A stretch of 58,180 nt of DNA, taken from NCBI GenBank assembly GCA_903828455.1, contig CAIKMJ010000034.1, positions 1 through 58,180 on the forward strand. Direction: 5' to 3'. Position 1 is the stretch's first letter; each line of letters starts with the position of its first letter. Shown here piece by piece: positions 8,602-16,245 of the stretch. A model generated the notes under the pieces. The model saw nothing but the letters and a program-made list of their open reading frames with translations. It did not search any database and had not been told where the DNA came from. Source of the stretch: an uncultured Acidobacteriia bacterium (GTDB lineage Bacteria; Acidobacteriota; Terriglobia; Bryobacterales; Bryobacteraceae). The translations under genes were made by a program, and so were the position numbers.

Positions 8602-10050
8602 TTACAGCCCGGCCTGCTTCCACAATTCGTCGACCCGCGCCTTCACGTCGGGAGCCATCTTCAGCACATCCGGCCACTCGCGCGTGAAGCCTTCGCCCGG
8701 CCACTTGCGCGTGGCATCCACGCCCATCTTGCTGCCGTAATTCACCAGCCGGCTGGCATGATCGAGCGAATCGATCGGCCCCATCGTGAACTGAATGTCG
8801 CGCTCCGGGTCGATGTTATTCAGCGCGCGCCAGGCCACTTCGCTGACGTTCTGCACGTCCACATCTTCATCCACCACCACGATGCACTTGGTGAACATCG
8901 CCTGGCCCAGACCCCAGATCGCGTTCATCACCTTGCGCGCGTGGCCCGGATAAGACTTGCGGATCGACACCAGCATGATGTTGTGGAAGATGCCTTCGGC
9001 CGGCATGCACATGTCGCGCACTTCGGGCAGCTGCAGACGCATCAGCGGCAGGAAGATGCGCTCGATTGCCTTGCCCATGTAGAAGTCTTCCATCGGCGGC
9101 GGACCAACAATCGTCGTCGCGTAAATCGGATCGCGCCGCTGCGTGATACACGTCACGTGGAAGACCGGGTACTGGTCGGCCAGCGAGTAGTAGCCGGTGT
9201 GATCGCCAAACGGCCCTTCCGTGCGCAGTTCGCCGAGGTTCACGTAGCCTTCGAGCACGATCTCCGCGTTCGCCGGCACTTCGATATCCACCGTCTGGCA
9301 CTTCACCATCTCCACGGGACTGCCGCGCAGGAAGCCGGCGATCATCATCTCGTCGAGGTCGGGCGGCAGCGGCAGAATCGCCGAATACATCGTGGCCGGA
9401 TCGGAGCCGATGGCCACCGCAACTTCCATGCGCGTCGACTTGCCGTCCGCCATCAGCCGCCGGTAGTGCTCGGCTCCCTGCTTGTGCGTCTGCCAGTGCA
9501 TACCGGTGGTGCGCTCGTCGAACACCTGCATCCGGTACATCCCGCAGTTGCGCTTGCCGGTCTCGGGGTTCTTCGAAAACACCATCGGCAGCGTGATGAA
9601 CGGCCCGCCGTCCTCCGGCCAGCACGTCAGCACCGGGTAATCGTAGAGCGAAAAGTTGTCGGTTTTGACGATCTCCTGGCACGGCCCTTTGGAAACAATC
9701 TTCGGAAAGAATGCGCCCATCTCGGCCAGCTTCGGCAGCATCTTCAGCTTGCCCAGCAGCCCTTCCGGCATGCGCATTTCCAGATATTCCGAAATGCGTT
9801 TGGCCACCGAATCGACCGAATCCACCTGCAGCGCAATCTCCATGCGCCGCATGCTGGCGAAGCTGTTGATCAGCACCGGAACATTCGACCCGCGCGGCTT
9901 CTCGAACAGCAGCGCCGGCCCGCCGCTCTTGACCGAACGGTCGGCAAATTCGGTGATTTCGAGACGCGGATCCACCTCGAAGGGGATCCGCTTCAGTTCG
10001 TTATTCTTTTCGAGTGCCGCGATAAATTCGCGAAGATCGTCGTAAGCCAT
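8602..10050 (-). CDS. UbiD-family prenylated-FMN decarboxylase
   Basis: This 482-residue protein is of the UbiD family, whose members (de)carboxylate unsaturated or aromatic acids using prenylated FMN. It has the full family length and the motif EGPFGDHTGYYS, which contains the Glu-Asp catalytic pair region, plus VGPPPMEDFYMGKAIERIFLPL in the middle and GHARKVMNAIWG further on. In quinone-making bacteria such enzymes serve ubiquinone or menaquinone synthesis. Acidobacteria use menaquinone, so a menaquinone-related decarboxylase is a reasonable inference. No ubiX-like flavin prenyltransferase is in the window. It converges on the aminotransferase with five bases between stops. Confidence 0.9.
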   Translation of the reverse strand: MAYDDLREFIAALEKNNELKRIPFEVDPRLEITEFADRSVKSGGPALLFEKPRGSNVPVLINSFASMRRMEIALQVDSVDSVAKRISEYLEMRMPEGLLGKLKMLPKLAEMGAFFPKIVSKGPCQEIVKTDNFSLYDYPVLTCWPEDGGPFITLPMVFSKNPETGKRNCGMYRMQVFDERTTGMHWQTHKQGAEHYRRLMADGKSTRMEVAVAIGSDPATMYSAILPLPPDLDEMMIAGFLRGSPVEMVKCQTVDIEVPANAEIVLEGYVNLGELRTEGPFGDHTGYYSLADQYPVFHVTCITQRRDPIYATTIVGPPPMEDFYMGKAIERIFLPLMRLQLPEVRDMCMPAEGIFHNIMLVSIRKSYPGHARKVMNAIWGLGQAMFTKCIVVVDEDVDVQNVSEVAWRALNNIDPERDIQFTMGPIDSLDHASRLVNYGSKMGVDATRKWPGEGFTREWPDVLKMAPDVKARVDELWKQAGL

Positions 10051-10110: not shown

Positions 10111-11625
10111 CTATTTGCGCGGCTTCACCGCGTAGGAGTACGCCACTTCGCCCTGCTTGTGCGCGGGCGTCTCATCCTTCGGCAGATAGGACCGGATGTA
10201 ATCCACCTTCACGTTGTCCGGTGTCACCGACACGCGCAGGTGCCCGCCGCCCGGCAGGATGTCGCCGGCGTACGCGTCGGGGAACGGCGTCGAGTTGCTC
10301 GGGTCCGCCGGATTAGGCGTCTCCTGATACACGATGCCGTCCTTCACTTCATGCGCGAACAGATGATCGTGGCCCTGGAAGAAGATGGTCACGCCGGTCT
10401 TCACCATCAGCTGATGGATCGGCAGTTCCCAGCCCGGCCGCATCTTGTCGAACTCCCACTCGCCCTTGTGATTCTTCCCGCCCCACTCGTACAGATCGGC
10501 CAGTTTGATGCCGCCGCGATCGATCCCCATCACGTGGTGCGTGAAGATGAACTTGTACTTTGCGTGGCTCTCTTCGAGCGTCTTCTTCAGCCACTTGTAC
10601 TGCGCGTCGCCGAGGGTGCTGCCCCAGCCGATGCTCTCGAGCGTGTACGTGTAACCGTTCTTCGCTCCCTTGCGGTTGCTCTTGTCCTTATCCGGCCGCT
10701 CGAAGCCCACCTCGGTGCCAACCTGCGTCGGCGACTGCCAGTAGGGATCGATGGTCACGAACAGCGCGTCGCCCCAGGTCCACGCGTAATAATCGCGGCG
10801 CAGACCGACGAACTGGACGGGCTCGGTATCGCCCGTGTAAAAACCATCCGGCTCCGGCTGCGGATAGTAGAGGTTGCGCGCCTTGCCGGCCCACACGGCA
10901 ACGTTATTCGGCGTGCCGTCCAGCAGGTACTTCGCCGCCTGCTCGTGATTGCCGTTGACCAGGAACAGCGGCGCCGAACTGGCCACCTTGCCGAAGAAAG
11001 CGCGCTGATTGATGTACAACTGGTTCACCACTTCGGGCGTCAGCGTCGTCAGCGTGTCCACGCTGAAGTCATCGCCGAGCGCGATATAGAAGTCGGGTTT
11101 CTCGCCGCGGACCTGCGCCAGCGTGCGGTCGAACATTGCGGCGTCGTACATCCGGTTCACGCGTTCGGGATGCGAATCGCCCTCCACGCCGAACACGAAC
11201 GAACTGCCCGCCGGCCGCTGCGTCTGAAACGAATTTGCCTCGCCCGCCGTGTAGGCCGCCGCGCCCGGTTTGCGGTAGCGGAGACGGTAGCTGTAATGCG
11301 TATTGGGTTTCAGTTTGTCGACGACGAACTCGACCGGCACACCGCCCTTCGTGGTCTTCGCGGCCACCTTCGACGGATAGCTTCCCGCCTTCACGCCGTA
11401 TTCAATGTACGCATCCATGTCGTCGGGCGCCAGCACGCTGAGCGTGATGGAATGGTCGGTCGGCCGCCCCAGCACCTGCGTCAGCGTCGTCACCACGGCT
11501 TTGGTGTCCGCCTTCATCGATTCCGGCGGCTGCTGCGCCTGCGAAAGCGTCACCACCACCGCCAGCATGCTGGCGCCGAAGATGGCGATCCCGGCCATCC
11601 CGTAATTGATCCGCGTGAGTTTCAT
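10111..11625 (-). CDS. secreted metallophosphoesterase with fibronectin-like N-domain (copy 1)
   Basis: This 504-residue protein is probably exported: an N-terminal hydrophobic stretch (GIAIFGASMLAVVVTLSQAQ) is a signal peptide or anchor. Residues about 45-135 form a purple-acid-phosphatase-like or fibronectin III domain ending in YSYRLRYRKPG. The calcineurin-like phosphoesterase core follows, with FGVEGDSHPER in place of the first DxH motif, LGDDF, NGNHE, FTHH and QGHDHLFAHE. The substrate, a phosphomonoester or diester, is unknown. It lies next to a paralog upstream (11734-13314) with the same domain order and a similar C-terminus; a strong hairpin separates the two, so they may be separate transcripts. 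Confidence 0.85.
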   Translation of the reverse strand: MKLTRINYGMAGIAIFGASMLAVVVTLSQAQQPPESMKADTKAVVTTLTQVLGRPTDHSITLSVLAPDDMDAYIEYGVKAGSYPSKVAAKTTKGGVPVEFVVDKLKPNTHYSYRLRYRKPGAAAYTAGEANSFQTQRPAGSSFVFGVEGDSHPERVNRMYDAAMFDRTLAQVRGEKPDFYIALGDDFSVDTLTTLTPEVVNQLYINQRAFFGKVASSAPLFLVNGNHEQAAKYLLDGTPNNVAVWAGKARNLYYPQPEPDGFYTGDTEPVQFVGLRRDYYAWTWGDALFVTIDPYWQSPTQVGTEVGFERPDKDKSNRKGAKNGYTYTLESIGWGSTLGDAQYKWLKKTLEESHAKYKFIFTHHVMGIDRGGIKLADLYEWGGKNHKGEWEFDKMRPGWELPIHQLMVKTGVTIFFQGHDHLFAHEVKDGIVYQETPNPADPSNSTPFPDAYAGDILPGGGHLRVSVTPDNVKVDYIRSYLPKDETPAHKQGEVAYSYAVKPRK

Positions 11626-11733: not shown

Positions 11734-13314
11734 TTACTTCTTCGGCAACACGACATAAGAGTCGGCAATTTCGCCGTTCTTATGCTGTGCGGTTTCCTTG
11801 GAAGGAATCCAGGTTTCCACGTAATCCACCTTGGTCTTTTCCGGCGAAACGGTCACGCGAAGGTAACCGGTGCCGCCGAGAACGGTGCCGTGAATGTAGT
11901 TGTACTGCTTGCCGCGGTTGCCGAGTTCGGTGCCGCTGGCGCTCGGCTGAGGGCCTTCCTGATACACGATGCCGTCCAGATCCTGCTTGGCATACGTGTG
12001 ATCGTGGCCGTGGAAGTAGATGGACGCGTTGTTCTCCACCAGCAACTGGTGGATCGGCTTCGCCCAGCCCGGACGCGCCTTATCCCATCCCCACGTGCCA
12101 TCGAGATTGTAACCGCCCATTTCGAGGTACTTCACCACTTCCACGCCGCCGCGCATCGCGCCGTCCATATCGAGACCGCCGATCAGGTTGTGCGAGAAGA
12201 TGAACTTGTACTTCGCCTTGCTGCCTTCGAGCGTCGTCTTCAGCCAGTCGTACTGTTCCTTGCCGAGCGTCAGATTCCAGTCGCCGGCCATCTCGGGCGC
12301 CTGCGGGTGATTCCAGTACGGATCGAGCACGATGAAGAGCGCATCGCCCCACGTGAACGCGTAGTTGGCCTGGCGGACGCCGACGATCGCTTCTTCCTTC
12401 GTGCTGCCGGTGTAGAAGTTATTCGGAATCGGATTCGGGAAGTAGCGTTTGCGGGCCAGCGCATCGAGGATACCGATGTTGACGCCGTTGTTGCCGCCGC
12501 CCTTCTTACCAGCATCGGCATTGGCGTTGGCCGCCACGGCTGCCGTCGCGCCCTTTTCACCTTCGTGGTTGCCCATGGAAAGGAACAGCGCCGCCGAGTG
12601 GTTCAGGATGTCGTAGTAGGAGCGCATCAGCAGCATGCGGTCTTCCACGCCTTCCTTCGACTTCGGATTCAGCTTGTCGACGAAGAAGTTATCGCCGAGA
12701 TCGACCATGAAGTCCGGCTTATCGGCCAGCATGTTCTTCAGGCTGAGGGCGTAGGTTTCGTCGCTCGAGCGTTCGTCCATGTGCGGGTCGAACTGCACCG
12801 TGAAGGTGTAGGTGCTGCCGGCGGGACGCGCGGTGTGGAAGGTGTGCTCGGCGCGGGCGATGTATTCGCCGTTGCCTTCGCGATAACGCATCCGGTAGAA
12901 GTATTGAGTATTCGCCTTCAGCTTCTGGATCTCGACGTTGAACGGCTCGCCGGCCGGATACTTCGCGGGCGCGGTCTTGCCCGTATACGAACCCGGCTTG
13001 GTGCCGTATTCGTAGTAAGCTTCGATCGCCTTCACCGGAGCCGCGTCGATCGTCACCGTGGTATCGGTGGGACGCCCGATCAGTTCCTGCGCCGAAAACA
13101 TGGGGTCGGGATTGTACCGCTTATGCTCGCCGAGGCCGCTGTTCGAGGGAGCCGGGTGCGTCACCAGAGCAGGATTCACCGAATCCGCAAAGTCCGAACC
13201 GCCCTTCTTTTCCTGTTTGCCCTGCTGGCCGGCTGCGTTCGGGGCCTGGATCACCAGCACCACCGCCGCAGTGAGCAGCGCGGCGCCGACGCCGATTTTT
13301 TGACTTGCCTTCAT
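11734..13314 (-). CDS. secreted metallophosphoesterase with fibronectin-like N-domain (copy 2)
   Basis: This 526-residue paralog of the gene at 10111 has an N-terminal signal sequence (ALLTAAVVLVIQAPNAAGQQ), a fibronectin-like domain (IEAYYEYGTKPGSYTGK ... YFYRMRYREGNGEY) and a calcineurin-like phosphatase core. Its metal motifs are more canonical than in copy 1: QFDPHMDE (DxH), LGDNFF, MGNHEG, FSHNLIG and FHGHDHTYAK. An Ala/Asn/Gly-rich insertion (AAVAANANADAGKKGGGNNG) follows the NHE motif. Both copies end with a similar segment (VKVDYI/VDYVETWIPSKET), pointing to duplication. A good promoter is seen just upstream at 13369-13396. Confidence 0.87.
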   Translation of the reverse strand: MKASQKIGVGAALLTAAVVLVIQAPNAAGQQGKQEKKGGSDFADSVNPALVTHPAPSNSGLGEHKRYNPDPMFSAQELIGRPTDTTVTIDAAPVKAIEAYYEYGTKPGSYTGKTAPAKYPAGEPFNVEIQKLKANTQYFYRMRYREGNGEYIARAEHTFHTARPAGSTYTFTVQFDPHMDERSSDETYALSLKNMLADKPDFMVDLGDNFFVDKLNPKSKEGVEDRMLLMRSYYDILNHSAALFLSMGNHEGEKGATAAVAANANADAGKKGGGNNGVNIGILDALARKRYFPNPIPNNFYTGSTKEEAIVGVRQANYAFTWGDALFIVLDPYWNHPQAPEMAGDWNLTLGKEQYDWLKTTLEGSKAKYKFIFSHNLIGGLDMDGAMRGGVEVVKYLEMGGYNLDGTWGWDKARPGWAKPIHQLLVENNASIYFHGHDHTYAKQDLDGIVYQEGPQPSASGTELGNRGKQYNYIHGTVLGGTGYLRVTVSPEKTKVDYVETWIPSKETAQHKNGEIADSYVVLPKK

Positions 13315-13396: not shown

Positions 13397-13469
13397 TACT
13401 CAGAAGCCCGGCACTTCCGAACCTGCTGCGCAAAAACCTGGTACTTACAAACCTAGTACTTCGGAACCT
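13395..13469. repeat. degenerate 15-bp tandem repeat, five units
   Basis: Five 15-mers in a row: AATACTCAGAAGCCC, GGCACTTCCGAACCT, GCTGCGCAAAAACCT, GGTACTTACAAACCT and AGTACTTCGGAACCT. They run from the -35 box of the phosphoesterase promoter into the last codons of the moeZ-like gene. They could be a minisatellite or a set of regulator sites upstream of the promoter. The plus strand can be read as pentapeptides, but that frame runs antisense to moeZ and is not called as a gene. Confidence 0.7.
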
Positions 13470-14613
13470 TCGGATCGACCTTGTCGCTCCATGCCAGGAT
13501 TCCGCCTGTCATGTTACGCGCCTGCGTAAATCCGTTCTGTTTCAGGAAGTCGACCGCTTTCGCGCTCCGGCCGCCCATCTTGCAATGCACCACCAGCTCC
13601 GCGTTCTTGTCGCCAAGCTCCGCGTAACGCTTCGGCAGTTCGTTCAGCGGGATCAGCACCGACCCCGGGATCCGGCAGATCTGGAATTCATGCGGCTCGC
13701 GCACATCGAGCAGCGTGAACCGATCGCCGCGATCCTGCTTCGCCTTCACTTCCACCGGATCGATATCGCTCGTCATCACAGCCGCCTCCGCCGGACCTTC
13801 GGCGTGTGGCACGCCGCAAAACTGCACATAGTCGATCAGCGCCTTCACCGTCGGGTTGTCGCCGCAGACCGGGCACTCGGGATCGCGCCGCAGCTTCATC
13901 TCGCGGAACTTCATCCCGAGAGCGTCATACAACATCAGCCGCCCGACCAGCGTGTCGCCGATCCCGAGAATCAGCTTCACCGTTTCCGTCGCCTGCACCA
14001 GACCGATGATGCCGGGCAGAATTCCCAGCACTCCGCCCTCGGCGCAGCTCGGCACAAGACCCGGAGGCGGCGGCTCCGGATACAGGCAGCGATAGCACGG
14101 CCCGCCCGGATAGGCGAACACCGTCGCCTGACCTTCGAAGCGGAAGATGGAACCGTAAACGTTCGGCTTGCCCATCAGCACGCAGGCGTCGTTGACTAAG
14201 TAGCGCGTGGGGAAGTTATCCGTGCCGTCCACGATGATGTCGTAGTCGCGGAAGATCTCCATCGCGTTCTCGCTCGAAAGCGCCGTCTCATGACGGTCCA
14301 GCTTCACGAACGGGTTGATGTCGGTCATCGTCTCAATGGCCGAATCGAGCTTTTTCTTGCCCACGTCCTTGGTGCCGTGGATCACCTGGCGCTGCAGGTT
14401 GGTGAAATCGACCACGTCGAAATCCACCAGGCCGATGCGCCCGATGCCCGCCGCCGCCAGATACATGCCGAGCGGCGCACCGAGTCCGCCCGTGCCCACC
14501 AGCAGCACGCTCGCCTGCTTCAGCTTCAGCTGGCCTTCCATACCCACTTCGGGCATGATCAGGTGCCGGCTGTAGCGAAGGATCTCTTCTTTGGAAAGGG
14601 TTACTTCAGACAT
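13453..14613 (-). CDS. moeZ: MoeZ/MoeB-like sulfur-carrier adenylyltransferase with rhodanese domain
   Basis: This 386-residue enzyme activates the C-terminus of a ubiquitin-like sulfur carrier by adenylation and then sulfurates it. The N-terminal E1-like domain shows RYSRHLIMPEVG, the nucleotide loop GTGGLGAPLGMYLAAAG, DGTDNFPTRYLVNDAC, CYRCLYPEPPPPG and the zinc-ligand pair CPVCGDNP. The C-terminal rhodanese domain (about residues 280-386) has DVREPHEFQICRIPGS and the active-site loop HCKMGGRSA with Cys344. In mycobacteria the MoeZ protein of this architecture activates CysO. Here its ATG overlaps the end of the CysO-like gene by eight bases, which ties it to that carrier. A general role in molybdopterin or thiouridine sulfuration is also possible. 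Confidence 0.92.
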   Translation of the reverse strand: MSEVTLSKEEILRYSRHLIMPEVGMEGQLKLKQASVLLVGTGGLGAPLGMYLAAAGIGRIGLVDFDVVDFTNLQRQVIHGTKDVGKKKLDSAIETMTDINPFVKLDRHETALSSENAMEIFRDYDIIVDGTDNFPTRYLVNDACVLMGKPNVYGSIFRFEGQATVFAYPGGPCYRCLYPEPPPPGLVPSCAEGGVLGILPGIIGLVQATETVKLILGIGDTLVGRLMLYDALGMKFREMKLRRDPECPVCGDNPTVKALIDYVQFCGVPHAEGPAEAAVMTSDIDPVEVKAKQDRGDRFTLLDVREPHEFQICRIPGSVLIPLNELPKRYAELGDKNAELVVHCKMGGRSAKAVDFLKQNGFTQARNMTGGILAWSDKVDPKVPKY

Positions 14614-14884
14614 GACCGCCTGCGATGCTGGGCACGATGGACACGGTATCGCTGTCCTTCACCGCGGTCGCCACTTTATCCATAAATCGAATGTCTTCGT
14701 CATTCAAATAGACGTTAACGAAACTTCGAAGTTTCCCCTCGTCTGTAAATAAATGTTTTTTGAGGTCGGGGAAACGCGCGGTAAGTGCTCCCAGCACTTC
14801 ACCGACGGTTGCGCCGCCCAGTTCAATGCTGTCATTCTTCTCCGCGAACTGCCGGAGGGGCGTGGGGATCATGATACGGGCCAT
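14606..14884 (-). CDS. cysO: CysO-like ubiquitin-fold sulfur-carrier protein ending GGHV
   Basis: This 92-residue MoaD/ThiS-fold protein is the sulfur carrier of the operon. The segment LRSFVNVYLNDEDIRF and the tail VSIVPSIAGG closely match mycobacterial CysO as I recall it, and differ from MoaD of molybdopterin synthase. The unusual point is the C-terminus: the di-glycine (Gly89-Gly90) is followed by His-Val before the stop. Carriers must end in a free Gly-Gly carboxylate to be adenylated, so two residues have to be removed first, presumably by the JAMM peptidase encoded just upstream. AGAGGA six bases before the ATG is a strong ribosome-binding site. It overlaps the JAMM gene by 16 bases and moeZ by 8. 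Confidence 0.9.
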   Translation of the reverse strand: MARIMIPTPLRQFAEKNDSIELGGATVGEVLGALTARFPDLKKHLFTDEGKLRSFVNVYLNDEDIRFMDKVATAVKDSDTVSIVPSIAGGHV

Positions 14885-15294
14885 GTTAGTTCCTCTTTAT
14901 CTGCGTGTGTCTGCTCGGCATTGGGTAGCCAGCTGTTGGCGTGGTCGAATTTGCCGTTCTGAATCGACAGAACGACAAACGAGTACCACGGACAGGAATT
15001 CTTCAAATCGGTTTCCGAAAAATATGCGCCGCAATCGGGATGCGAATGGTAGATGCCGATCAGATCCAGCTTCCGTTCGCGCGCTTCGCGGTCGGCGCGC
15101 AGCAGGTCTTCCGGACGCAGTTCGTAGCGGGCGGCCTGCGATCCGGCCGAAACGTTGTCCAGCGCCAGCGCAATCGTCACCACCTTCTTCTCGCCGTCGA
15201 TGGTGCCGATCATCGCGCCGCAGCATTCGTTCGGATACGCCGCCTGCGCATGGTTCACCATTTCGCGCCAGGGGCCGCGTTCAATATCGATCAT
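14869..15294 (-). CDS. mec: JAMM/MPN+ metallopeptidase (Mec-like)
   Basis: This 141-residue zinc isopeptidase is of the JAB1/MPN/Mov34 family. All metal-site residues are visible: Glu23 in PNECCG, His83 and His85 in YHSHPDCG, Ser93 and Asp96 in FSETD, which is the HxHx7Sx2D signature. In Mycobacterium the homologous Mec+ releases cysteine from the CysO-cysteine adduct. JAMM enzymes in other pathways (HcyD, QbsD) instead trim extra residues from a sulfur carrier to expose its Gly-Gly. Both jobs are plausible here because the carrier ends GGHV. The gene sits three bases after cysM and overlaps the carrier gene, so coupled expression is likely. Confidence 0.92.
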   Translation of the reverse strand: MIDIERGPWREMVNHAQAAYPNECCGAMIGTIDGEKKVVTIALALDNVSAGSQAARYELRPEDLLRADREARERKLDLIGIYHSHPDCGAYFSETDLKNSCPWYSFVVLSIQNGKFDHANSWLPNAEQTHADKEELTWPVS

Positions 15295-15297
15295 GAT

Positions 15298-16245
15298 TCA
15301 GTCTTCCGTTTCGTCCCAGAAATGTTCGCTCAGATACTTATCGGCGCTGTCGCAAAGGATGGTCACGATCACACCCTTTTTGCCCTGCGCGTGCAGTTCG
15401 CGCGCAACCTTGACCGCCGCCACCACGTTACCGCCCGCCGAAATGCCGCCCAGAATGCCTTCCACCCTGGCCATGCGCTTCACCATTTTGTGGCAATCCT
15501 CGGTTTCGATTTCCAGATTGCGGTCGGCCACGGTTTCGTCGTAGATGCCCGGCACAATCGCGGTCGGCATGTGCTTGGTGCCTTCGATCCCGTGGAAGCC
15601 CACCGAAGGCTGCGCCGAGAAGCACTGCACGCCCGGCACATCCCGCTTGAGCCGCCGGCTGTTGCCGATGAACGTTCCGCTGGTGCCGAGCAGCGCCACG
15701 AAGTGCGTGATGCGTCCGCCGGTCTGCGCGATGATCTCGGGCGCGGTGGTCTCGAAGTGCGCCTGCCAGTTGGCCGGATTGTTGTACTGATCGGGATAGA
15801 AATACCGGTCCGGATCCTTCGCGTACATTTCGCGCACGCGGCGGATGGCTCCGTCCGAACCCTCGTCGCCCGGCGTCAGCACCAGTTCCGCGCCATAGGC
15901 GGCGAGGATGCGCTTGCGTTCCATTGACGCGTTCATCGGCAGGCAGAGCTTCACCTTATAACCGCGCGCCGCGCCGAACATGGCGTACGCGATGCCGGTG
16001 TTGCCGCTGGTGGCGTCGATCAGCGTCTTGTCTTTGGTCAGCTTGCCGGTGCGCTCGCCGTCCTGAATCATGTTCAGCGCCGCGCGGTCTTTGACGGAAC
16101 CGCCCGGATTGAAGTACTCGGCCTTGGCGTAAATCTCAATGCCGGGAAACTCCGCCGCGATCTTTTCGAGCCGCAGCAGAGGCGTGTTGCCCACATTTCC
16201 GATTACATCGTGCGCCATGCGAGGCGCGAATTGGGTGCCGGTCAT
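15298..16245 (-). CDS. cysM: CysM-like cysteine synthase (thiocarboxylate-dependent type)
   Basis: This 315-residue fold-type II PLP enzyme is of the cysteine synthase family. The Schiff-base Lys is Lys52 in FNPGGSVKDRAAL, the substrate loop is ATSGNTGIAYAMFGA and the phosphate-binding region is LLGTSGTFIGNSRRL. Its first position in an operon with JAMM, CysO-like and MoeZ-like genes makes it the likely partner that adds the carrier thiocarboxylate to activated serine (O-phospho- or O-acetylserine), giving a carrier-cysteine adduct. That donor is inferred from context. A sulfide-using O-acetylserine sulfhydrylase cannot be excluded from sequence alone. The ATG at 16245 leaves a 135-bp divergent region to the glycosyltransferase. 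Confidence 0.9.
   Translation of the reverse strand: MTGTQFAPRMAHDVIGNVGNTPLLRLEKIAAEFPGIEIYAKAEYFNPGGSVKDRAALNMIQDGERTGKLTKDKTLIDATSGNTGIAYAMFGAARGYKVKLCLPMNASMERKRILAAYGAELVLTPGDEGSDGAIRRVREMYAKDPDRYFYPDQYNNPANWQAHFETTAPEIIAQTGGRITHFVALLGTSGTFIGNSRRLKRDVPGVQCFSAQPSVGFHGIEGTKHMPTAIVPGIYDETVADRNLEIETEDCHKMVKRMARVEGILGGISAGGNVVAAVKVARELHAQGKKGVIVTILCDSADKYLSEHFWDETED

What the first reader, a model, noticed from the sequence alone, without database searches (positions are those of the whole stretch)
13453..16245. CysO-type cysteine operon whose carrier protein ends GGHV and needs trimming
The sequence shows four tightly packed genes (cysM-like, JAMM peptidase, CysO-like carrier, MoeZ-like activator), and the carrier ends Ala-Gly-Gly-His-Val-stop. 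Known CysO ends in Gly-Gly, and MoeZ-type enzymes need that free end. In related systems (HcyS/HcyD for homocysteine; QbsE/QbsD) a JAMM enzyme removes extra C-terminal residues first. I infer that this JAMM protein may both activate the carrier (removing His-Val) and release cysteine from it, joining two known roles in one enzyme.
Basis: partly seen in the sequence, partly recalled or inferred. Interest (0 to 1): 0.78.

Follow-up and report, generated by a model that had tools for sequence, protein, structure and literature searches.

The report
Capped cysteine carrier needing protease trimming
In this soil bacterium and the relatives examined, the small protein that carries sulfur for making cysteine seems to be made in a blocked form, with extra residues or the whole next enzyme attached, so the protease encoded beside it probably has to cut it free before it can work.

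Summary
On the minus strand, cysM, a JAMM peptidase, a CysO-like carrier ending AGG-His-Val and a MoeZ-like activator are packed head to tail. The tail is no error. Every sampled acidobacterial carrier with JAMM immediately upstream (231 of 231) carries something after its invariant Gly-Gly: 116 have 1-25 extra residues, 115 are fused in frame to MoeZ, the enzyme that must adenylate that glycine. In the window's family no clean GG end was seen (150 loci), although tail length changed at least 27 times. The 14 clean GG carriers found in the phylum have no JAMM immediately upstream. The window genome has one Prok-JAB match, and its MoaD is also fused, to MoaE. Trimming by the JAMM is well supported by comparison; its second role, cysteine release, rests on homology to the known pathway. 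Capped carriers trimmed by a JAMM protease are known (QbsD; capped PtmS2), so this is a new variant of a known kind. I found no description of such consistent capping in cysteine operons, of carrier-MoeZ fusions, or of the one JAMM-carrier-MoeZ frame. Nothing was tested biochemically.

The parts
15298..16245 (-). cysM-like PLP cysteine synthase (first gene)
   Evidence: PF00291 E=1e-62; TIGR01136 cysKM 344.4 bits, cut-off 344.15; TIGR01138 cysM 352.7 bits, below its cut-off 394.2; best solved relative cysteine synthase B 2bhs
14869..15294 (-). JAMM/MPN+ metallopeptidase, proposed maturation and release protease
   Evidence: PF14464 E=1.3e-26; E23, H83, H85, S93, D96 invariant in 29 aligned sequences; model pLDDT 90.3 matching 2kks, 2kcq and PfJAMM1-SAMP2 5lda; the only Prok-JAB match in the genome at E<=0.001
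14606..14884 (-). CysO-like sulfur carrier, 92 aa, ends AGGHV
   Evidence: PF02597 E=1.4e-13; closest solved chain 3dwg_C, which ends at the GG
14615..14620 (-). codons of Gly89-Gly90, predicted cleavage after Gly90
   Evidence: AGG invariant in 125 of 125 fused and 123 of 123 tailed acidobacterial carriers
14609..14614 (-). codons of the His-Val cap, overlapping the moeZ start codon
13453..14613 (-). MoeZ-like E1 (ThiF) plus rhodanese, predicted to adenylate and thiocarboxylate the trimmed carrier
   Evidence: PF00899 E=8e-81 and PF00581 E=8.5e-20; solved relatives Uba4 6yub and MoeB 1jw9

Best explanation
A CysO-type cysteine operon in which the carrier is made as a blocked precursor. The adjacent JAMM metalloprotease cuts after Gly90, removing His-Val here and separating the carrier from MoeZ in the many relatives where the two are one protein. 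The free Gly-Gly end is then adenylated and thiocarboxylated by MoeZ, CysM couples the sulfur to an activated serine, and the JAMM releases cysteine from the carrier-Gly-Gly-Cys adduct, which to the protease looks like a carrier with a one-residue cap. Shown here by sequence: gene order, capped end, intact catalytic motif, capping and fusion across the family and phylum. Inferred: the cut itself, its position, the order of steps and the cysteine-releasing role. Since the window genome has one Prok-JAB match and also a MoaD-MoaE fusion, the same JAMM probably cuts that too (inferred).
For: Acidobacteriota, 262 unique carriers: with JAMM on the same strand within 1.3 kb upstream 116 tailed, 115 fused to MoeZ, 0 clean; without it 14 clean, 10 fused, 7 tailed. 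The 17 capped or fused ones without JAMM upstream all lie in genomes with a Prok-JAB match, one of them only weak (G376, E=7.8e-4). In 42 non-acidobacterial genomes, 25 of 26 capped or fused carriers have a JAB match in the genome at E<=0.001 and 8 of 16 clean ones do, Fisher p=7.8e-4; at E<=1e-8 it is 24 of 26 against 6 of 16, p=2.5e-4. AGG is invariant before a variable linker; residues 86-95 (carrier end and start of the linker) of a fusion model have pLDDT under 50. 38 of 128 linkers contain no ATG, GTG or TTG, so a separate MoeZ start there is unlikely in those. One genome (L295) has JAMM, carrier and MoeZ in one 619-aa frame. Precedents in passages read: capped carriers and QbsD (PMC6006322); DRJAMM cutting MoaD-MoaE (PMC8832034); MoaX cleavage at Gly-Gly (PMC4326299).
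Against: No biochemical test. JAMM does not force a cap outside Acidobacteriota: L049 and L351 are clean with JAMM upstream, L024 and L029 clean with JAMM downstream, L075 clean with JAMM on the other strand; L024, L025, L041, L062 and L071 are clean in genomes with strong JAB matches. Twelve of the 14 clean acidobacterial carriers also lie in genomes with a JAB match. L026 is tailed with no JAB found in its (possibly incomplete) genome. The eight clean genomes without JAB are all planctomycete MAGs (seven titled Phycisphaera or Phycisphaeraceae) and many tailed ones are Brocadia or close kin, so the Fisher tests overstate independence; the tree-corrected pair test on the carrier tree was inconclusive (2 usable pairs). 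Half of the acidobacterial tails overlap the moeZ start, so overlap may explain their letters.
Confidence: 0.8

Rival explanations
1. The tail is a by-product of packing: stop and moeZ start overlap (translational coupling, with Shine-Dalgarno-like GGAGG in the Gly codons), and the extra residues are simply tolerated because something trims them.
For: 62 of 123 tailed acidobacterial carriers have all candidate moeZ starts before the carrier stop, the window among them; many Gly codons read GGAGG.
Against: 50 of 123 have no overlap and keep the tail (2 ambiguous, 9 without a MoeZ hit); in 19 of 123 the MoeZ profile match begins 90 nt or more after the GG; GGA-TGA would give both a clean GG and an overlap; the fusions have no stop at all; at least 27 changes of tail length in the family never reached zero.
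Confidence: 0.2
2. Another protease or carboxypeptidase trims the cap and the JAMM only releases cysteine, as Mec+ does in Mycobacterium.
For: Mec+ acts on a carrier that already ends in GG (PMC3227635, passages; 3dwg_C).
Against: Of 43 capped or fused carriers without JAMM immediately upstream that were checked genome by genome (17 acidobacterial, 26 others), 42 lie in genomes with a JAB match, two of these weak, and one (L026) does not; a carboxypeptidase could not split carrier-MoeZ fusions; JAMM precedents for this kind of cut exist.
Confidence: 0.12
3. The carrier is (also) a protein modifier and the JAMM is chiefly a deconjugating enzyme, as for archaeal SAMPs.
For: Carrier scores over the SAMP1 cut-off (65.7 against 60) and the JAMM hits the desampylase model below its cut-off (63.2 against 130); fold match to PfJAMM1-SAMP2.
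Against: Conserved neighbourhood with cysM and an E1 with a rhodanese domain points to sulfur transfer. Conjugation partners were not searched for. Not exclusive of trimming.
Confidence: 0.1
4. The fused carrier works uncut, its GG serving another purpose.
For: Ub-like domains fused to ThiF in Campylobacter were thought to play a different role from standalone ThiS (PMC1779556, passages).
Against: AGG invariant in 125 of 125 fused acidobacterial carriers; adenylation needs a free carboxylate (established chemistry of MoeB and MoeZ); fused and tailed forms replace each other at least 22 times on the MoeZ tree.
Confidence: 0.04

Closest known systems
CysO / CysM / MoeZ / Mec+ cysteine pathway of Mycobacterium (PMC3227635, passages)
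   Same: Same four activities predicted; carrier homologous over its whole length (3dwg_C, E=1.9e-17)
   Different: CysO ends in GG; here the end is capped, and in relatives often fused to MoeZ
Row 4c operon of Iyer 2006: ThiS/MoaD, E1-rhodanese, JAB, cysteine synthase, listed for Solibacter usitatus (PMC1779556, passages)
   Same: Same gene set in the same phylum; that paper already suggests JAB could free ThiS or MoaD from fusions
   Different: The passages read do not describe capped ends or carrier-MoeZ fusion in this operon
Capped carriers: PtmS2 (GG-MV), PtmS3 (GG-C) with JAMM PtmS1, and QbsE/QbsD (PMC6006322, passages; the QbsE ending is recalled)
   Same: Residues after GG, JAMM gene beside PtmS2, trimming said to be needed before activation
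   Different: Natural-product pathways; no carrier fused to its E1 in the passages read
JAMM-cut MoaD-MoaE of Deinococcus and MoaX of Mycobacterium (PMC8832034, PMC4326299, passages)
   Same: Carrier freed from a downstream protein at GG
   Different: Partner there is the sulfur-using enzyme MoaE; here it is the activating enzyme itself
HcyS/HcyD of Wolinella (recalled only; the listing showed papers on homocysteine, none on this system)
   Same: JAMM trimming a carrier in amino-acid biosynthesis
   Different: Homocysteine rather than cysteine synthase context

Membership tests
JAMM/MPN+ metallopeptidase (Prok-JAB) | Family profile and Glu plus HxH...S..D metal site | tested here: met
   PF14464 93.1 bits, cut-off 25; E23, H83, H85, S93, D96 invariant in 29 sequences; HxH...[ST]..D in 238 of 241 neighbouring JAMM frames, the other 3 being short pieces near the end of the fetched stretch
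JAMM/MPN+ metallopeptidase (Prok-JAB) | Cleaves after Gly-Gly of a ubiquitin-fold protein | not testable with these tools
   needs protein
CysO carrier | ThiS/MoaD-type ubiquitin-fold protein related to 3dwg_C | tested here: met
CysO carrier | Ends in a free Gly-Gly as translated | tested here: not met
   ends GGHV; hence called CysO-like
CysO pathway | CysM-like synthase, MoeZ-type E1 with rhodanese and JAMM protease in one operon | tested here: met
CysO pathway | CysM accepts carrier thiocarboxylate and O-phosphoserine | not tested
   specificity residues not examined
Capped sulfur carriers needing a JAMM protease (QbsE, PtmS2 type) | Residues after GG in a carrier encoded beside a JAMM gene | tested here: met
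Capped sulfur carriers needing a JAMM protease (QbsE, PtmS2 type) | Trimming shown | not testable with these tools
   needs protein
SAMP/desampylase system | JAMM over the desampylase cut-off | tested here: not met
   63.2 bits against 130

The most novel reading that the evidence does not exclude
In Acidobacteriota the carrier of this operon is obligatorily born blocked, often as a carrier-MoeZ polyprotein, so one JAMM protease gates sulfur activation. In the window organism its single JAMM would do three jobs: mature the cysteine carrier, split MoaD-MoaE for molybdenum cofactor, and release cysteine. The cap is selected for its presence rather than its sequence.
Probability: 0.45. Interest if true: 0.72.

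Novelty: new variant of a known kind. Interest (0 to 1): 0.6.

Why it matters
If true, it makes a deubiquitinase-type protease an obligatory maturation step of a primary-metabolism pathway across much of a major soil phylum, much as eukaryotic ubiquitin is made as fusions that must be cut. It also gives a natural experiment, 22 or more switches between tailed and fused forms, for asking why a carrier stays blocked when a clean end is one stop codon away.

Tried and rejected
Sequencing error or one-off tail: rejected (150 family loci from 51 genera, none clean). Tail letters as a conserved signal: rejected (43 different tails among 81 rows, at least 47 changes of sequence). Fused carriers without any JAB in family f19 (G389, G450; suspected from long frames and absence from the list): rejected, L317 and L318 are not fused but clean GG, without JAB. 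Tree-corrected association of JAMM and capping on the carrier tree: inconclusive. Promoter- and terminator-like sites: none above the shuffles; Rfam families in the window: none. Literature search for HcyS: only papers on homocysteine in the listing. Plasmid records: 14 with a match, all under 60% identity, not followed. Rows dropped before counting: 339 carrier hits in 334 of 336 loci became 318 unique ones; L254 and L256 are the own-genome ThiS and MoaD loci and hold no carrier of this type; hits of 20 bits or less and of 50 bits or less were not taken; the 30 loci L337-L366 were counted apart. Not read: matches below the listing limit.
Full report
What is there. The minus strand of 13453-16245 carries cysM, JAMM, carrier and moeZ in that order, with a 3-nt gap and overlaps of 16 and 8 nt. 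Pfam and NCBIfam support each gene. The carrier (92 aa) aligns to mycobacterial CysO (3dwg_C) up to Gly90, where CysO ends, and then continues His-Val-stop. The bases of His-Val include the moeZ start codon.

The organism. The window lies in a 4.4-Mb genome (G000). The nearest named relatives of the carrier are Bryobacteraceae and Bryobacterales MAGs (81% identity and less), so it is an acidobacterium (inference). The genome has one Prok-JAB match at E<=0.001 and three ThiS-family frames: this carrier, a ThiS ending clean ...VGGG, and a 248-aa MoaD-MoaE fusion. In the family, 212 of 237 genomes have MoaE; most of the listed MoaE frames are 230 aa or longer, which suggests that the fusion is usual, but only the window's own was read.

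C-termini in the family. A profile search (alignment A1) found the carrier in 204 of 237 family genomes. I read 30 loci from that search and 120 more, 150 loci from 51 genera; places below the listing limit were not read. None ends in GG: 91 tailed, 59 fused to MoeZ. After dropping duplicates, also of loci already held, 133 remain: 80 tailed, 53 fused. Tails of 1 residue (33) and 2 residues (20) prevail. Among the 123 tailed carriers of the phylum arginine is the commonest first residue (40), then alanine (25). On a family MoeZ tree (132 rows, 81 of them tailed) tail length changed at least 27 times and tail sequence at least 47 times; zero was never reached. If each change had a 20% chance of landing on zero, the chance of none would be 0.002 (an illustration, not a model).

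C-termini in the phylum. Of 396 genomes drawn evenly, 197 have the carrier. I read the 30 loci given there (27 of them new) and 80 fetched. With the family and the named loci this makes 262 unique acidobacterial carriers: with JAMM on the same strand within 1.3 kb upstream 116 tailed (1-25 residues), 115 fused, 0 clean; without it 14 clean, 10 fused, 7 tailed. Two of the 14 clean ones (L282, L322) are the first of two carriers in one locus and have the JAMM gene 1.5-2.1 kb downstream, beside the second, fused carrier; in L292 the JAMM gene is on the other strand 4.3 kb away. Twelve of the 14 clean ones lie in genomes with a JAB match; the two without (G389, G450) are both of family f19. The 17 tailed or fused ones without JAMM upstream all come from genomes with a Prok-JAB match, one weak. 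In nine genomes I read a second carrier: the first is fused in 9 of 9, the second is clean in 5 and tailed in 4; a tenth genome (G456) has two clean carriers and a weak fused match (66 bits) and is left out of this count. Eight of the 14 clean carriers have a weak PALP hit 1.2-1.7 kb upstream; in the one annotated, L282, it is a threonine synthase gene.

Fusions. Carrier and MoeZ share one open frame in 125 acidobacterial carriers (one of them, L327, a weak 66-bit match; 7 run off their contig stretch). A, G, G is invariant in all 125, followed by a variable linker, 16-21 residues long in 96 of 128 fusions (other phyla included), up to the RYSRH motif; 38 of 128 linkers have no possible start codon, 11 have an ATG. 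The AlphaFold model of one fusion (L007; mean pLDDT 81) has pLDDT under 50 at residues 86-95, the carrier's end and the start of the linker; other low stretches lie at 280-288 and 365-374. Fused and tailed states need at least 22 changes on a FastTree MoeZ tree of 237 rows, and 7 in the family, 5 of them forced by strongly supported branches. L295 has JAMM, carrier and MoeZ in one 619-aa frame; L204 has JAMM and carrier in one frame. Since E1 chemistry needs a free glycine carboxylate (established for MoeB and MoeZ), such proteins could not be activated without a cut.

Outside the phylum. In 42 non-acidobacterial genomes, chosen because their carrier locus showed no JAMM or a weak one, 25 of 26 capped or fused carriers have a Prok-JAB match in the genome and 8 of 16 clean ones do (Fisher p=7.8e-4). 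This is not corrected for phylogeny: the eight clean genomes without JAB are all planctomycete MAGs, and many tailed ones are Brocadia or close kin. L026 is the exception, tailed with no JAB found; the matches for L076 (E=5.6e-4) and G376 are weak. Clean carriers in genomes with strong JAB matches are L024, L025, L041, L062 and L071. Clean carriers with JAMM in the locus are L024, L029, L049 and L075. In a Chloroflexota class (120 genomes, 68 with matches) the 30 loci given are 20 tailed, 6 fused and 4 clean, one of the clean (L351) with JAMM upstream. So JAMM permits a cap; it does not demand one. The strict rule is seen only in the acidobacterial sample.

The protease. The catalytic set is invariant in 29 aligned sequences, and its HxH...[ST]..D part is present in 238 of 241 neighbouring JAMM frames, the other three being short pieces near the end of the fetched stretch. 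The predicted fold (pLDDT 90.3) matches bacterial JAMM proteins and the archaeal PfJAMM1-SAMP2 complex.

Mechanism. I commit to JAMM maturation: cut after Gly90, MoeZ activation, CysM coupling, then JAMM release of cysteine. The adduct carrier-GG-Cys and the precursor carrier-GG-Arg have the same shape for the protease, which makes a shared activity plausible (inference). Why capping never lapses in this operon is open. Overlap with moeZ may explain the letters of about half of the tails (62 of 123) but not the 50 without overlap. Gating of activation by the protease, or making carrier and activator in fixed ratio in the fusions, are possible reasons.

What is known. The operon was listed in 2006, including Solibacter (PMC1779556, passages), with the suggestion that JAB might free fused ThiS or MoaD. 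Capped carriers and their trimming by a protease such as QbsD are described in work on thioplatensimycin (PMC6006322, passages). JAMM cutting MoaD-MoaE is described in Deinococcus (PMC8832034, passages). The paper searches that ran (open-licence library only, listings and starts of abstracts seen) showed no carrier-MoeZ fusion and no obligatory capping in cysteine operons; most subscription papers are not in that library. Hence: new variant of a known kind.

Noticed in passing
G000:C14:47664-48290 (L256, 248-aa frame): The window organism's MoaD is fused to MoaE (ThiS plus MoaE domains), with GG at the joint, so a second protein that would need a cut; the genome shows a single Prok-JAB match.
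   Followed up: partly
L295, 619-aa frame, minus strand: JAMM, carrier and MoeZ in one open frame: a protease carrying its own proposed substrate.
   Followed up: partly
L186, L220, L208 carrier ends: Tails that repeat the cleavage motif (IAGG-SPSIAGG-R, IAGG-KIAGG-K, IAGG-TPGG-TN), each again followed by extra residues.
   Followed up: no
L067, L260, L265, L291 carrier ends: The encoded one-residue cap is cysteine (GGC-stop), the same make-up as the CysO-cysteine adduct.
   Followed up: no
L043 and L061: Carrier followed in frame by about 80 residues; in L043 these match the NIL domain (PF09383).
   Followed up: partly
L282, L038, L023: Carriers of a second type lie beside a threonine synthase gene, clean in L282 and L023, tailed in L038; the purpose of the pairing is unknown.
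   Followed up: no
window 10111-11625 and 11734-13314, minus strand: Two long neighbouring proteins that look alike, with phosphoesterase-like GNHE and GHDH motifs (by eye, not searched), next to a UbiD-like gene at 8602-10050 (by eye).
   Followed up: no
L006: Record titled as a Bordetella parapertussis MAG carries an acidobacterial-type operon; probably a mislabelled bin.
   Followed up: no
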